Source: a virus
Length of the DNA: 21,014 nucleotides
Virus record (IMG/VR): IMGVR_UViG_3300025083_000270
Location: 1 to 21,014 of that record
Strand: one strand, 5' to 3'
Both the position numbers and the translations under genes were made by a program. Below are positions 15,903 through 20,030 of the stretch, piece after piece. Under the pieces are notes generated by a model. It did no database searches. It had not been told where the DNA came from and saw nothing but the letters and a program-made list of their open reading frames with translations. Position 1 is the first letter of the stretch, and every line of letters begins with the position of its first letter.

Positions 15903-18155
15903 ATGGCTAGCCTTTTAGACAGAATTTCAAAACTTATTAGTAAGAACGCCCAACAGACAGCAGCAGAATATAACCGCGCTATATACCAATACTTAGGCGA
16001 AAGTATTTTATGGAACCCAGAAAACGACAGAAGCTATATAGACGAAGGCTACCGTAAGAACGCTACAGTATATTCGCTGGTAAACATTATTACCAAAGCA
16101 GCTACTACTATACCCTTCCAGGTCTACGAAAAACAAAGCGATAACGACTTGAAACGCTACAAGGCGCTAACAAGTGGCACGCTAGATAGTAGTACTATGT
16201 ACCAGGCTAAGATGCTACAGAAGAACGCGCTAGTAGAAGTTAAAGACACCGCACTACACCAACTGCTAGACAGACCAAACGCGGCGCAGTCTTATAACAG
16301 CTGGCTAACTGAACTTATAGCCTTTGGTAAACTAACTGGTAACCGTTACGTATATGGTATAGGACCAGATAGCGGACCTAACCAAGGTAAGTATACTGAA
16401 CTATATGTACTACCTAGTCAAGTAGTAGAAATAGTATCTAACGGTATAATGCAGCCTATTAAAGAATACCGTATAGAATATAACGGTAACTATAGTATGG
16501 ACGCAGACTGCGTACTACATATAAAAGACTTTAACCCTTACTACGACGGTACAGGCAGCCACTTATACGGTCAAAGCCCACTACGCGCTGGTCTTAGAAG
16601 TTTAACAACAAACAACGAAGCCGTAACTACAGGGGTTAAATATCTACAGAACCAGACCGCTAGGGGTGTACTTATGTCCGAGGAAGGCGACCTAAACGAA
16701 GTACAGGCGCAACAATTAAAGGATAAATTTAGACAGCAATACCAAGGTAGTAACAATGGCGGCGACGTTATTATAACACCTAAGAAACTTAGCTGGGTAA
16801 ACTTTGGTTTAAACGCTGCGGACGTTTCACTAATAGACCAGTATAACGCATCTATAAAAGATATTTGTAACATATTTAACGTACCAGTACAGCTACTAAA
16901 CAATACAGAAGCCAGCACGTATAACAATATGAAAGAAGCCAAAAAGGCTTTATACCAAAACGCTGTTATACCAGAACTAGTAAAACTACGCGACGAACTG
17001 AACCGCTGGCTGGTCCCAATGTACGGCGACAACCTATACCTAGACTTTGACTTTACAGCCATACCAGAACTACAGGAAGAAAACGACAAAGTAGTACAAC
17101 AGCTAAGCGCTGCCTGGTGGATAACACCAAACGAAAAACGCGCTGTAATGAACTACGGCAAAGACGAAGACACGCCAGCTATGGACGACTACTATATACC
17201 TAGTAACCTACTACCAGTAAGTAACCAGGATATAGAAATACCAGAACCAGCGCCTATGGCTGTAGATATAGAAGAAGAAAAACGCCTAATAAAAGAAGCG
17301 CTTAAAGATATTGTAGTAAACGCCGAAACTGTAGAAGTTAAAGCTAAAGTACCTGGAATGACAGACGTATATACTACAGAAGAAGAAGCACAGGCACGCG
17401 CTGAAGAACTAGGCGGCAGCGGTACACACCAGCACACCTTTGACGGCGAAGAAGTATATATGCCTTTTGACACCCACGCAGAATACGAAGAAGCTATAGC
17501 CGAAAGTAAAAAGCAAATGTCTGACAAGCTAAAGACTGCACTAGAAAAAAAAACTAACGACCATAACGAAGAAGTAGGCGACGACGATAGCAAGCGTACT
17601 ACTGTAGGCACACTATACGAAGTATATAAACGCGGTATAGGCGCTTATAGAACTAACCCAGAAAGCGTACGCCCAACGGTACAAAGCCCAGAACAGTGGG
17701 CTATGGCACGCGTAAACAGTTATTTATATGCGCTTAAAAATGGTAAGTTTAGGGGTGGCAAACACGATACAGACTTACTACCAGCTGAACACCCAGAAAG
17801 CAGTAAAGAAACTAGCAAAGCAGAAAGCTACGACGACTACCCACAAACGGCGACTAACAACGCTAAGCGTATGCTAGGCTGGATAGAGAAATACGGTAGG
17901 GACGTAGTAACAGCTGGTACGAACGTAGGGCTAGCTAGGGCGCAGCAATTAAGCAGCCGCGAACCAATTAGCCTAGATGTTTTAAAACGCACTAGAAGCT
18001 ATTTAGAACGCGCCAAAACGTACAGTACTGTAGACCCAAAACACAAAGACGAACCCTGGCTAGATAACGGTTTTGTAGCTTACAACTTATGGGGTGGCGA
18101 AGCTATGCGCGTATATGCAAACAAAAAGCTAGCCGAACTAGAAGACAATGCCTAA
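15903..18155 (+). CDS. Portal protein (HK97 family) with two extra C-terminal domains
   Basis: The first 440 or so residues form an HK97-type portal: NATVYSLVNIITKAATTIPFQVYE (near 52-75), LLDRPNAAQSYNSWLTELIAFGKLTGNRYVY, GQSPLRAGL, then FNVPVQLLNN and YNNMKEAKKALYQNAV, which are recurring portal motifs. The protein is 750 residues, against a usual 400-500. The extra part begins with a short EAQARAEELGGSGTHQHTF...YMPFDTHAEYEEA linker (about 492-531) and continues with two modules. One (about 539-630) carries GTLYEVYKRGIGAYRTNP and PEQWAMARVNSYLYALKNG; the other (about 640-750) carries NNAKRMLGWIEKYG and DEPWLDNGFVAYNLWGGE. I have seen similar modules attached to phage head proteins, but their roles are unknown to me. 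The MuF gene overlaps its end by eight bases. Confidence 0.9.
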   Translation: MASLLDRISKLISKNAQQTAAEYNRAIYQYLGESILWNPENDRSYIDEGYRKNATVYSLVNIITKAATTIPFQVYEKQSDNDLKRYKALTSGTLDSSTMYQAKMLQKNALVEVKDTALHQLLDRPNAAQSYNSWLTELIAFGKLTGNRYVYGIGPDSGPNQGKYTELYVLPSQVVEIVSNGIMQPIKEYRIEYNGNYSMDADCVLHIKDFNPYYDGTGSHLYGQSPLRAGLRSLTTNNEAVTTGVKYLQNQTARGVLMSEEGDLNEVQAQQLKDKFRQQYQGSNNGGDVIITPKKLSWVNFGLNAADVSLIDQYNASIKDICNIFNVPVQLLNNTEASTYNNMKEAKKALYQNAVIPELVKLRDELNRWLVPMYGDNLYLDFDFTAIPELQEENDKVVQQLSAAWWITPNEKRAVMNYGKDEDTPAMDDYYIPSNLLPVSNQDIEIPEPAPMAVDIEEEKRLIKEALKDIVVNAETVEVKAKVPGMTDVYTTEEEAQARAEELGGSGTHQHTFDGEEVYMPFDTHAEYEEAIAESKKQMSDKLKTALEKKTNDHNEEVGDDDSKRTTVGTLYEVYKRGIGAYRTNPESVRPTVQSPEQWAMARVNSYLYALKNGKFRGGKHDTDLLPAEHPESSKETSKAESYDDYPQTATNNAKRMLGWIEKYGRDVVTAGTNVGLARAQQLSSREPISLDVLKRTRSYLERAKTYSTVDPKHKDEPWLDNGFVAYNLWGGEAMRVYANKKLAELEDNA

Positions 18156-19806
18156 ACAACTGCTAAGTAAACAGTTTAAGCAAGTCTGGCAAACGTCCGT
18201 AGAACGCGAACGCGGTAAAATGGAACGCCAGTACATAGCTAAGCTACGCAAATGGTATAACGCCGAATACGCTAAAGGCGTCCAGCAGTTTGTAGACGAA
18301 GGGCGTATAATAGTACAGGGTTTATTTCCTGTAGCTTTTTTGTCTAAATTCTACGAAGAATACTACGAAGAAACAGGGCTACACTTTGCGAACTGGTATT
18401 TTAAGAACTATAAAAAGTTTGTAAAGAAGCAAAGCGCCGAACAATACCAGAACCAATGGCGCGCTAGTTTTGCTAGTTATGGCGCTGCGGTAGCTAAAAC
18501 AAACGTAACACTAGTACAGGGTACAGCGTTAAAAACCCTTATAGCCCTTACAACTAAACTTAGCCGCGACCCAGAATTCCAAGCGCTAGGCGCAGCTGAA
18601 CAAGCGCGTATATTACGCCGACAGTTTGACGGCTACAGTAAATATCAAGCTGAACGGTTTATACGTACAGAAACCACCGCTATAAGTAATAAGGCTATAC
18701 TAGAAAGCGCTACTACTATATTCCCAGCAGACCAGCTATATAAAGAATGGTCTACAGCACTAGACGGACGCGAACGCGCAAGCCATAGGGCAGCAGACGG
18801 ACAAACCGTACCTTTTAACCAGCCTTTTATAGTACAGGGACAGGAACTAATGGAACCAGGCGACAGGAACGGCAGCGCTAGTAACGTAATAAATTGTAGA
18901 TGCGCCGCTATACCAGTACCTATAGAAGACGCTGTAGCTGTAGAAGGTTTAGAAAATATAGGCGTACAAATAGCTGGCGAAAACCTAACAGGTGGACTAA
19001 CCGCCGCAGACGTAGCAAGTATAGCAGCAACTATAGGCGCACCAAAACCAAAACCTAAGCCAAGGTACAGCGGACCAGACCAAGGCAAAGGCGAACCGCT
19101 AGGCGACTACTTAGAAAGGGTAAACCACCCAGCACTAGACCAGTATAAGCAATTAAAGAAAATAGAAGCCCAAGGCTATATAGTAGGCGACCTAGAAATA
19201 CTAAAACAAGTAAAACAAAGTATAGATATACGTTTGAAGTCAAACCAAGGCGCTTTTTTAAGCGCTGATAACACCTTTATAGAAATAGGTACACTAAGAT
19301 TTAAAAAAGGTAGTAATTCGTTTAAAAAGGTTTTGAACCACGAAATAGGACACCAGATACATTTTCAAAATGAATGGTCTAGCTATAAAATAGTTTCTAA
19401 TAAAATAGTAGAAAAATACTTTACTAAATTTAATAAACAGCTAGGTTTTAGAGATAGACGCCAAGGCGATATACATTTTAAGTATAATAGGAAGCTACAA
19501 AATTTATTTAATAAAGATAAAGCCGACTATTTTAAAAAGAAATATAAACTAACCGACCAGGAATATAAAGAATTTCGCGCCGCTACTTATGATTTTTTTG
19601 GCGCTATTACTAAAAATAAAGTAGGCGGCGGACACAAAAACGTTTATTATAAAGGTAGTTATGGTAAAAACGCCCAGCGCTGGGAAGTATTAGCCCACGC
19701 TAGCGAAAACTTCTACGACGGCGGTAACCCTTTATTTAAGGAACTTTTTCCAGAAATATACGCTGACACTTTAAAACTTTGGGACGAACTTTTAAAAAGC
19801 AAATAA
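18148..19806 (+). CDS. MuF-type minor head protein fused to a zinc-metallopeptidase-like C-terminal domain
   Basis: Residues 1-260 are a phage Mu F-like head morphogenesis protein: RFIRTETTAISNKAILES (170-187), then KEWSTALDGRERASHRAADGQ (199-219) and NVINCRCAAIP (246-256), the family's conserved end. A Lys/Pro linker (KPKPKPR, 300-306) leads to a separate domain of about 240 residues. It contains VLNHEIGHQIHF (395-406), an H-E-x-x-H zinc site with His398, Glu399 and His402, and later WEVLAHASENF (512-522), where Glu513 could be the third ligand; TYDFFGAITKNKVGGGHK lies between. MuF proteins of phages are known carriers of polymorphic C-terminal toxin domains that can be injected with the genome. 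Whether this one is a toxin, a head-maturation enzyme or inactive cannot be told from sequence. From about 19230 the code becomes more AT-rich, as if the domain came from elsewhere. Confidence 0.85.
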   Translation: MPKQLLSKQFKQVWQTSVERERGKMERQYIAKLRKWYNAEYAKGVQQFVDEGRIIVQGLFPVAFLSKFYEEYYEETGLHFANWYFKNYKKFVKKQSAEQYQNQWRASFASYGAAVAKTNVTLVQGTALKTLIALTTKLSRDPEFQALGAAEQARILRRQFDGYSKYQAERFIRTETTAISNKAILESATTIFPADQLYKEWSTALDGRERASHRAADGQTVPFNQPFIVQGQELMEPGDRNGSASNVINCRCAAIPVPIEDAVAVEGLENIGVQIAGENLTGGLTAADVASIAATIGAPKPKPKPRYSGPDQGKGEPLGDYLERVNHPALDQYKQLKKIEAQGYIVGDLEILKQVKQSIDIRLKSNQGAFLSADNTFIEIGTLRFKKGSNSFKKVLNHEIGHQIHFQNEWSSYKIVSNKIVEKYFTKFNKQLGFRDRRQGDIHFKYNRKLQNLFNKDKADYFKKKYKLTDQEYKEFRAATYDFFGAITKNKVGGGHKNVYYKGSYGKNAQRWEVLAHASENFYDGGNPLFKELFPEIYADTLKLWDELLKSK

Positions 19807-20009
19807 TGGACGAACTAGGTAAACTATTAGAAAAATACCAAGCAGCTAACCCAGAAGCTGAAAACCCTTTTAACTTCTTTAGCTATTTAGGCGACGAAGG
19901 TTTAATAGATATGCTTAAAAAAGCACTAAAAGAAGGTTTAATACTAGAAGCTGTAGAAGACGGAATAGGTCCAGACCAAGGCGAAGTAACACTAATAAAA
20001 AAACCGTAA
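19806..20009 (+). CDS. Small acidic protein coupled to the MuF-metallopeptidase gene
   Basis: The frame starts at 19806 with a one-base overlap of stop and start (TAATG), so it is translationally coupled to the MuF gene. It encodes 67 residues, strongly acidic and helical (MDELGKLLEKYQAANPEAENP, then GDEGLIDMLKKALKEGLILEAVED). No family is recognised. Genes in this place beside MuF toxins can encode immunity or inhibitor proteins, but small head-assembly genes are equally common between MuF and protease genes. The call is therefore open. The TAA stop is also the start of the next promoter box. Confidence 0.65.
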   Translation: MDELGKLLEKYQAANPEAENPFNFFSYLGDEGLIDMLKKALKEGLILEAVEDGIGPDQGEVTLIKKP

Positions 20010-20014
20010 ATTTG
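20007..20014 (+). promoter_or_regulatory. Promoter -7 box TAAATTTG before the protease gene
   Basis: TAAATTTG matches TAnnTTTG, overlaps the stop codon of the preceding small gene and lies 16 bases before the ATG at 20031. It could drive the protease and capsid genes independently of the portal operon. Confidence 0.55.
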
Positions 20015-20030
20015 TACAAATTATTCTAAT

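What the first reader, a model, noticed from the sequence alone, without database searches (positions are those of the whole stretch)
18148..20009. MuF head protein armed with an HEIGH metallopeptidase-like domain and a coupled acidic small gene
Seen: a MuF-like N-terminus, a Lys/Pro linker, then a 240-residue domain with HEIGH (His398, Glu399, His402) and a later WEVLAHASENF; a 67-residue acidic gene overlaps the stop by one base. Known: MuF proteins of phages often end in swappable toxin domains, and zinc metallopeptidases of H-E-x-x-H type are among such effectors. Inferred: the C-terminal domain may be an injected effector cutting a host target, or an enzyme acting in the head, and the small gene may be its inhibitor. 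The more AT-rich code of the domain, relative to the MuF part, fits module exchange.
Basis: partly seen in the sequence, partly recalled or inferred. Interest (0 to 1): 0.75.

Follow-up and report, generated by a model that had tools for sequence, protein, structure and literature searches.

The report
Swappable phage capsid protease-plus-partner cassette
A phage head protein ends in a zinc-protease domain that, together with a tiny acidic gene behind it, is swapped, replaced or deleted as one unit between otherwise near-identical phages, which is what one expects of an injected effector and its matching antidote.

Summary
Residues 1-296 form a MuF head protein. The C-terminal part (modelled 308-552, pLDDT 90) is an HExxH metallopeptidase-like domain. 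A 67-aa acidic gene overlaps the stop codon by one base.

Related phage loci turn the guess of module exchange into a demonstrated fact. MuF parts over 90% identical carry domain alleles 39-49% identical to the window's. Domain and small gene change together (r=0.92) and independently of MuF and the prohead protease (r -0.13 to 0.07), with sharp joints. A small ORF follows in 39 of 39 domain-bearing loci; 60 of 63 domainless ones lack it. Other zincin types (B/C, D) come with other, unrelated partner families. Two contigs keep an orphan type-A partner without its domain.

Two cultured Flavobacterium phages isolated on one strain, lotta8-1 and pippi8-1, align at 98.8-99.96% but carry different cassettes.

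Best reading: a capsid-delivered protease effector with a cognate inhibitor/immunity protein, a variant of the MuF polymorphic toxins (Jamet 2017). It differs in occurring where no integrase was found and in a slot where all 31 complete extensions seen were metallopeptidase-like. Delivery, toxicity, target and inhibition are inferred.

The parts
15903..18155 (+). portal protein with C-terminal extensions; its end overlaps the start of the MuF gene
   Evidence: PF04860 E 4e-58; ORF table
18148..19806 (+). MuF head protein with C-terminal metallopeptidase-like domain, 552 aa
18148..19035 (+). conserved MuF part (residues 1-296)
   Evidence: 91-96% aa identity in close relatives; PF04233 at residues 151-255
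19036..19107 (+). Lys/Pro linker = 5' joint of the exchanged cassette
   Evidence: 19036-19095 93-100% identical DNA in the 11 relatives that have it, while the domain beyond drops to 42-71% in the 7 divergent alleles
19108..19803 (+). zincin-like metallopeptidase domain (residues 321-552), type A
   Evidence: AlphaFold pLDDT 89.9 for residues 308-552; invariant motif residues
19339..19353 (+). HEIGH motif (His398, Glu399, His402)
   Evidence: H, E and second H invariant in 24 of 24 aligned alleles
19633..19635 (+). His496 of the invariant GxGH motif, possible further active-site residue
   Evidence: invariant in 24 of 24; role inferred
19684..19686 (+). Glu513, probable third zinc ligand
   Evidence: invariant in 24 of 24; in a helix after the HExxH helix; role inferred
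19806..20009 (+). 67-aa acidic partner (putative inhibitor/immunity) gene, type A
   Evidence: co-varies with the domain; found only with the domain apart from two orphan copies
19976..20030 (+). 3' joint of the cassette (last codons of the partner gene and spacer)
   Evidence: 91-100% identical DNA in 12 of 12 relatives, incl. the cassette-free allele L030
20031..20702 (+). S78 prohead protease, conserved flank
   Evidence: PF04586 E 3.3e-30; 93-97% DNA identity

Best explanation
The locus encodes a capsid-loaded effector and its antidote. The MuF part binds the portal side of the procapsid and carries the C-terminal zinc protease into the head (inferred from SPP1 gp7). At infection the protein enters the cell with the DNA and the protease cuts a cytoplasmic target (inferred). 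The 67-aa acidic protein is made from the coupled cistron, binds the positively charged domain and keeps it inactive in the producing cell, and can protect a cell or a co-infecting phage genome that carries a matching allele (inferred). Domain plus partner recombine as one cassette through conserved joints in the linker and at the end of the partner gene, so phages exchange, replace or lose the weapon and its antidote together (shown).
For: Cassette boundaries in DNA: 87-100% outside, 42-71% inside for the 7 divergent alleles, among 12 relatives. Domain-partner distance correlation r=0.92 (p 2e-4), MuF-S78 r=0.77 (p 2e-4), but MuF-domain -0.13, MuF-partner -0.09, domain-S78 -0.04, partner-S78 0.07 (11 sequences). 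Small ORF in 39 of 39 domain-bearing loci against 3 of 63 domainless. Zincin types that align only around HExxH (A vs B; A vs D) carry partners with no detectable relation (A vs B/C; D vs both). Within type B, lotta8-1 matches in domain (E 2.4e-30) and partner (E 3.6e-24); within type D, L238 matches in domain (57%) and partner (71%). Orphan type-A partner in L138 (no domain) and L137 (type B domain and partner plus leftover A partner), with 10 silent against 3 amino-acid-changing codons between the two copies besides the start codon. Domain under purifying selection: dN/dS 0.15-0.27 in 7 close pairs, 0.08 in one near-identical and 0.48 in two divergent pairs. lotta8-1 and pippi8-1: 997 bp without counterpart, from about residue 276 of the MuF protein to the end of the small gene, in genomes otherwise aligning at 98.8-99.96%. 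Position with a small ORF also in Enterococcus, Streptococcus and Stenotrophomonas phages and 8 of 8 complete VEsP-1-like contigs. SPP1 gp7 is targeted to the procapsid interior by the portal protein (PMC6316719 passage).
Against: No experiment shows delivery, toxicity or inhibition. Partners do not follow domains strictly: L017 and L024 have domains 48% but partners 87% identical, and the type B and C partners L166 and L167 are 56% identical while their domains are only weakly related once the shared linker is cut off (E 2.3e-4, probability 44%). Specificity may thus be broad. Partner dN/dS is noisy, 0.24 to 1.35 on few sites in 9 informative pairs of 10. The silent bias between the orphan copies may date partly from before they lost the domain. 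The small protein could be a loading chaperone. All 31 complete extensions on this MuF lineage have HExxH, narrower than the mixed repertoire of published MuF toxins. No integrase or resolvase was found in 16 records, while published MuF toxins are tied to temperate phages. The type-A partner and the Enterococcus partner are alike by position only; a profile comparison did not support homology.
Confidence: 0.67

Rival explanations
1. Counter-defence or host-takeover protease: the injected domain destroys a bacterial immune or regulatory protein to help infection; the small protein merely holds it inactive during assembly. Allele diversity follows diversity of host targets, not competition.
For: Fits virulent phages (no lysogeny genes detected in pippiphages, PMC7077304 passage) and a slot in which all 31 complete extensions are HExxH domains. 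Jamet et al. also suggest resistance to host defence as a role for mildly toxic MuF proteins such as peptidases (passage). Looser partner matching fits as well.
Against: Does not by itself explain retention of orphan partners without a domain. No PADLOC match for the seven proteins tested, which says little about targets.
Confidence: 0.3
2. Head-acting enzyme: the domain processes portal, scaffold or other head proteins during assembly and the small protein times its action.
For: It sits in the head operon between portal and prohead protease.
Against: 96 of 137 loci found by MuF-part queries have no extension over 100 aa, including the 92% identical L030, so assembly does not need it; an S78 (window) or Clp-like (lotta8/pippi8) protease gene is present anyway; flanking head genes are conserved while the domain is replaced.
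Confidence: 0.07
3. The small gene is a loading chaperone or stabiliser of the domain, not an inhibitor; the pair is still an injected effector.
For: Co-inheritance, gene overlap and opposite charge fit this equally, as do similar partners with divergent domains.
Against: Two orphan copies stay intact without a domain of their type to load.
Confidence: 0.22

Closest known systems
MuF polymorphic toxins (Jamet et al. 2017, PMC5576092; parts 1 and 2 of 6 and searched passages seen)
   Same: MuF N-terminus next to portal gene; exchangeable C-terminal domain; 20% of their 191 toxins have a metallopeptidase domain; 89.4% are followed by an ORF under 150 aa against 25.5% of short MuF genes
   Different: Theirs are concentrated in Firmicutes and temperate phages and more than half have nuclease domains; here environmental phages without detected integrase, HExxH domains only, allelic exchange shown at DNA level, several partner families, orphan partners
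Bxa of a Bacteroides stercoris prophage (Alexei et al. 2024, PMC11699363; abstract and section 7 seen)
   Same: Bacteroidota prophage MuF protein with a toxic C-terminus neutralised by adjacent immunity gene products
   Different: ADP-ribosyltransferase, not protease; prophage; experimentally tested there, not here
phrog_4728 / phrog_115 minor head proteins (e.g. Enterococcus phage VEsP-1)
   Same: 8 of 13 aligned domain alleles match phrog_4728 at E up to 1, best 4e-10; VEsP-1 domain aligns to the type-A profile, E 1.2e-13; a 76-aa ORF follows
   Different: The window's own domain does not match phrog_4728 on its own; the small partner is not shown to be homologous; Firmicutes phages
Lethal-factor / PPEP-like zincins
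   Same: HExxH with a later Glu; the first 21 structural rows are all of this group; the type C domain matches Pfam ATLF below cut-off, E 9.2e-5
   Different: Z at most 7.5 and no Foldseek hit at E<=0.001; no Pfam match over cut-off; no cell-entry apparatus other than the phage head

Membership tests
MuF polymorphic toxin | MuF domain at the N-terminus | tested here: met
   PF04233 E 2.7e-11, 44.6 bits over the cut-off of 29.6
MuF polymorphic toxin | gene immediately downstream of the portal gene | tested here: met
   portal 15903-18155, MuF gene from 18148
MuF polymorphic toxin | C-terminus varies while the N-terminus is conserved | tested here: met
   mean aa divergence MuF 7.4%, domain 46.8% in 11 sequences; replaced or absent domains
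MuF polymorphic toxin | small ORF directly downstream, tied to presence of the domain | tested here: met
   39 of 39 with domain, 3 of 63 without
MuF polymorphic toxin | C-terminal domain is toxic and the small protein protects | not testable with these tools
   needs expression; no complex prediction was available
MuF polymorphic toxin | association with temperate phages (statistical, not definitional) | tested here: inconclusive
   no PF00589 or PF00239 match in any of 16 virus records, but their completeness is not known
Zincin-like metallopeptidase | HExxH plus conserved downstream Glu | tested here: met
   invariant in 24 of 24 alleles
Zincin-like metallopeptidase | zinc-site geometry | not testable with these tools
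   no coordinates returned; helix positions agree
Lethal-factor/PPEP-like zincins | shared fold | tested here: inconclusive
   Z 6.2-7.5 for the first 21 rows, all of this group, but under 8; Foldseek E above 0.001
Prohead maturation protease | needed for head maturation, conserved with head genes | tested here: not met
   no extension over 100 aa in 96 of 137 relatives, decoupled from head genes; separate S78 protease next door

The most novel reading that the evidence does not exclude
In these seemingly virulent phages the cassette is a phage-against-phage weapon: the virion-borne protease injected by one phage disables a cell already infected by a competitor, or the competitor's proteins, unless the resident phage makes a matching partner. 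The orphan partners are immunity kept against weapons of neighbours, and the slot holds proteases because the target must be destroyed without damaging the shared host's machinery.
Probability: 0.2. Interest if true: 0.88.

Novelty: new variant of a known kind. Interest (0 to 1): 0.62.

Why it matters
Capsid-delivered polymorphic toxins have been proposed mainly for temperate phages, where killing competitors helps the lysogen. Finding a cleanly exchanged protease-plus-partner cassette, with empty alleles and orphan partners, in phages that appear virulent asks what such a weapon is for when there is no lysogen to benefit. Two cultured phages isolated on one Baltic Sea Flavobacterium strain, nearly identical except for this cassette and two other short regions, make the question directly testable by mixed infection.

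Tried and rejected
Sequence searches of the window-type domain alone: no match in the phage collection, no solved relative (only weak ribosomal-protein chance hits), no family over cut-off in Pfam or NCBIfam, no PADLOC match. Scan of the bacterial genome collection with the domain profile: 40 pattern stretches, none confirmed. A scan with the MuF alignment could not start; with the window's MuF part it gave 26 stretches and 3 distant relatives (30-47% identical; two Campylobacteraceae MAGs, one Rhodobacteraceae MAG), whose C-termini I did not examine. So the host of the window phage and any provirus of its lineage were not found; these scans rest on short patterns. Foldseek and VIA with the small partner: no meaningful match (best Z 3.7), so its fold is not assigned.

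I first thought that the type-A partner and the partner of Enterococcus and Streptococcus phages were one family because of a similar pattern by eye; the profile comparison did not support it and the claim is dropped. The type B-type C domain match (E 1.9e-13) was inflated by a linker that both loci share; without it E is 2.3e-4, probability 44%. Type D against type B: E 0.0025 over 86 columns, probability 12%; against type A only 15 columns at HExxH. The type-B profile also matched 14 type-A loci, which I put down to the shared linker. One weak partner-A match in G014 (E 0.0012) was not followed.

Rows dropped before counts: one search reduced 217 loci with a MuF hit to 150 by identical sequence around the ORF end; these are still related contigs, not independent events. 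One search counted the 102 of 150 whose MuF ORF was complete and whose prohead protease was recognised by a motif. Its three domainless loci with an ORF are L138 (orphan partner), L067 (unrelated 91-aa ORF) and L057 (MuF ORF read as only 23 aa, next ORF 259 aa). One search used the 137 of 150 reached by MuF queries: 31 long, 96 short, 10 cut by the contig end (3 of these with HExxH). One search used the window and 10 loci with all four segments complete; near-duplicates such as L018, L026 and L032 were left out.

Annotations 'structural protein' in lotta8/pippi8 rest on similarity; 'mass spectrometry' does not occur in the paper, so they are no evidence of presence in virions. Literature: the searches listed nothing on exchanged MuF metallopeptidase cassettes in such phages; the library lacks most subscription journals.

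Full report
What is there. The window is a 21,014-base virus record. ORF 18148-19806 encodes 552 aa and ORF 19806-20009 encodes 67 aa; stop and start share one base. Upstream lie terminase and portal genes, downstream an S78 prohead protease (PF04586, E 3.3e-30). Residues 151-255 match PF04233 MuF (E 2.7e-11). The C-terminal part matches no family over a curated cut-off in Pfam or NCBIfam.

The domain folds. AlphaFold on 13 alleles gives pLDDT 89.9 and pTM 0.88 for residues 308-552: a few strands, the HExxH helix and a later helix with Glu513. In 24 aligned alleles, the others 25-94% identical to the window's, H398, E399, H402, D482, G493, G495, H496, Y500 and E513 are invariant. The first 21 rows of the structural second look are all lethal factor, Certhrax, PPEP or edema-factor chains, Z 6.2-7.5, which is below 8 and only suggestive; Foldseek gave nothing at E<=0.001 in the PDB. 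In the viral library the two hits at E<=0.001 are unnamed, the third is a minor capsid protein.

Exchange as a unit. Among 12 relatives, DNA identity to the window is 87-97% in the MuF part and 93-100% in the linker (11 with a linker). For 7 divergent alleles it is 42-71% through the domain and most of the small gene. It is 91-100% from the last codons of the small gene to the protease gene, and 93-97% in that gene. In 11 sequences the domain and partner distances correlate at 0.92 and MuF with prohead protease at 0.77 (both p 2e-4). The four cross comparisons are -0.13 (MuF-domain), -0.09 (MuF-partner), -0.04 (domain-S78) and 0.07 (partner-S78), none significant. L020 and L024 share an almost identical cassette (dS 0.02 and 0.00) on MuF parts with dS 0.29. 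The sequences were chosen by me for completeness and are related, so p-values are indicative.

Presence and absence. Of 137 loci reached by MuF-part queries, 31 have a complete extension over 100 aa, all with HExxH; 96 are short; 10 are cut by contig ends. Of 102 loci with a recognisable prohead protease, 39 of 39 with a domain have a small ORF between, against 3 of 63 without. L030 (MuF 92% identical) lacks domain and small gene but keeps the last codons of the small gene as a scar.

Types and partners. Type A (the window) and type B zincins align only over 12 columns around HExxH, and their partners show no relation. Types B and C have Cys/His-rich partners of 54-66 aa, 56% identical between L166 and L167, although their domains are only weakly related. 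The cultured phage lotta8-1 has a type B domain and partner. pippi8-1 has a further zincin (type D), with only HExxH in common with type A and a weak match to type B, and a 70-aa very acidic partner unrelated to A or B. L238 carries type D with a 71% identical partner; L239 has a more distant type D domain and a 76-aa ORF that resembles the partner by eye. So unrelated protease types come with unrelated small genes, but within a type one partner form can sit with quite different domains (also L017 and L024: domain 48%, partner 87%).

Orphan partners. L138 has a short MuF followed by an intact 61-aa type-A partner (36% identical to the L048 partner, E 1e-13). L137 has a type B domain, its type B partner, and then a type-A partner. 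Between the two orphan copies 10 codons differ silently and 3 change the amino acid, besides the start codon; part of this may predate loss of the domain. In the loci held, type-A partners occurred in 82; only these two lacked a type-A domain. Five loci with a type-A-like domain and no type-A partner are Enterococcus, Streptococcus, Stenotrophomonas and gut phages; in four of the five a different ORF of 71-76 aa follows directly, in the gut record L130 none was seen.

A natural experiment. lotta8-1 and pippi8-1 were isolated on Flavobacterium sp. LMO8 (host range passage of PMC7077304). Their genomes align in three blocks at 98.8-99.96%; 33,189 of 34,711 positions of pippi8-1 are identical. 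Bases 16,822-17,818 of pippi8-1, the MuF C-terminus from about residue 276 plus gp029, have no counterpart; the other strong differences are a ~260-bp early stretch and part of a tail gene. The paper states that no genes for lysogenic replication were detected in mumin-, pippi- and tantphages (passage); lotta8-1 is a Pippivirus. For the window lineage no integrase or resolvase was found in any of 16 records.

How it most likely works. SPP1 gp7 is targeted to the procapsid interior by the portal protein, and toxin delivery by gp7-like fusions has been proposed (PMC6316719 passage). On that basis the domain is carried in the head and enters with the DNA (inferred). The partner, acidic against a basic domain (net -2 to -9 against +4 to +15 in 11 sequences), is best read as inhibitor (inferred). 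The unrelated partner families and the orphan copies favour immunity over simple chaperoning; the looser matching within types speaks the other way. In virulent phages the beneficiary is unclear: host takeover, counter-defence or contest between phages all remain open.

Known or new. Jamet et al. 2017 defined MuF polymorphic toxins, with 20% metallopeptidases and small downstream ORFs; Alexei et al. 2024 tested one in Bacteroides. The window pair fits that kind. New here, as far as the searches show, are the slot in which every extension seen is HExxH, the cassette exchange with its joints, orphan and empty alleles, and occurrence in phages that look virulent.

Noticed in passing
window 17200-18155: The portal protein carries optional C-terminal modules (about 300 aa beyond the portal core; DUF5824 E 3.2e-6, phrog_2859 E 8.2e-9): L028 and L025 lack about 145 aa of it and L164 lacks the extension.
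   Followed up: partly
L028:4866-5000 and similar: Several relatives have an extra ~45-aa N-terminal peptide with conserved Arg/Cys on the MuF protein that the window lacks.
   Followed up: no
L129:4592-4822: The small ORF behind the MuF-protease of Enterococcus phage VEsP-1 is annotated 'coenzyme F420 hydrogenase domain protein', probably a misannotation.
   Followed up: partly
L236:6623-6886 and 30501-31000: Apart from the MuF cassette, pippi8-1 and lotta8-1 differ strongly only in a small early gene region and in part of tail gene gp046.
   Followed up: no
L235:3795-4709: In Flavobacterium phage FPSV-S1 a short MuF gene is followed, at the place of the cassette, by a gene annotated as site-specific DNA methylase.
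   Followed up: no
L166/L190, L168/L182/L198, L173/L186: Contigs from the same metagenome number include both cassette-bearing and cassette-free phages of one MuF lineage, so the alleles appear to coexist (that the number names the sample is recalled).
   Followed up: no
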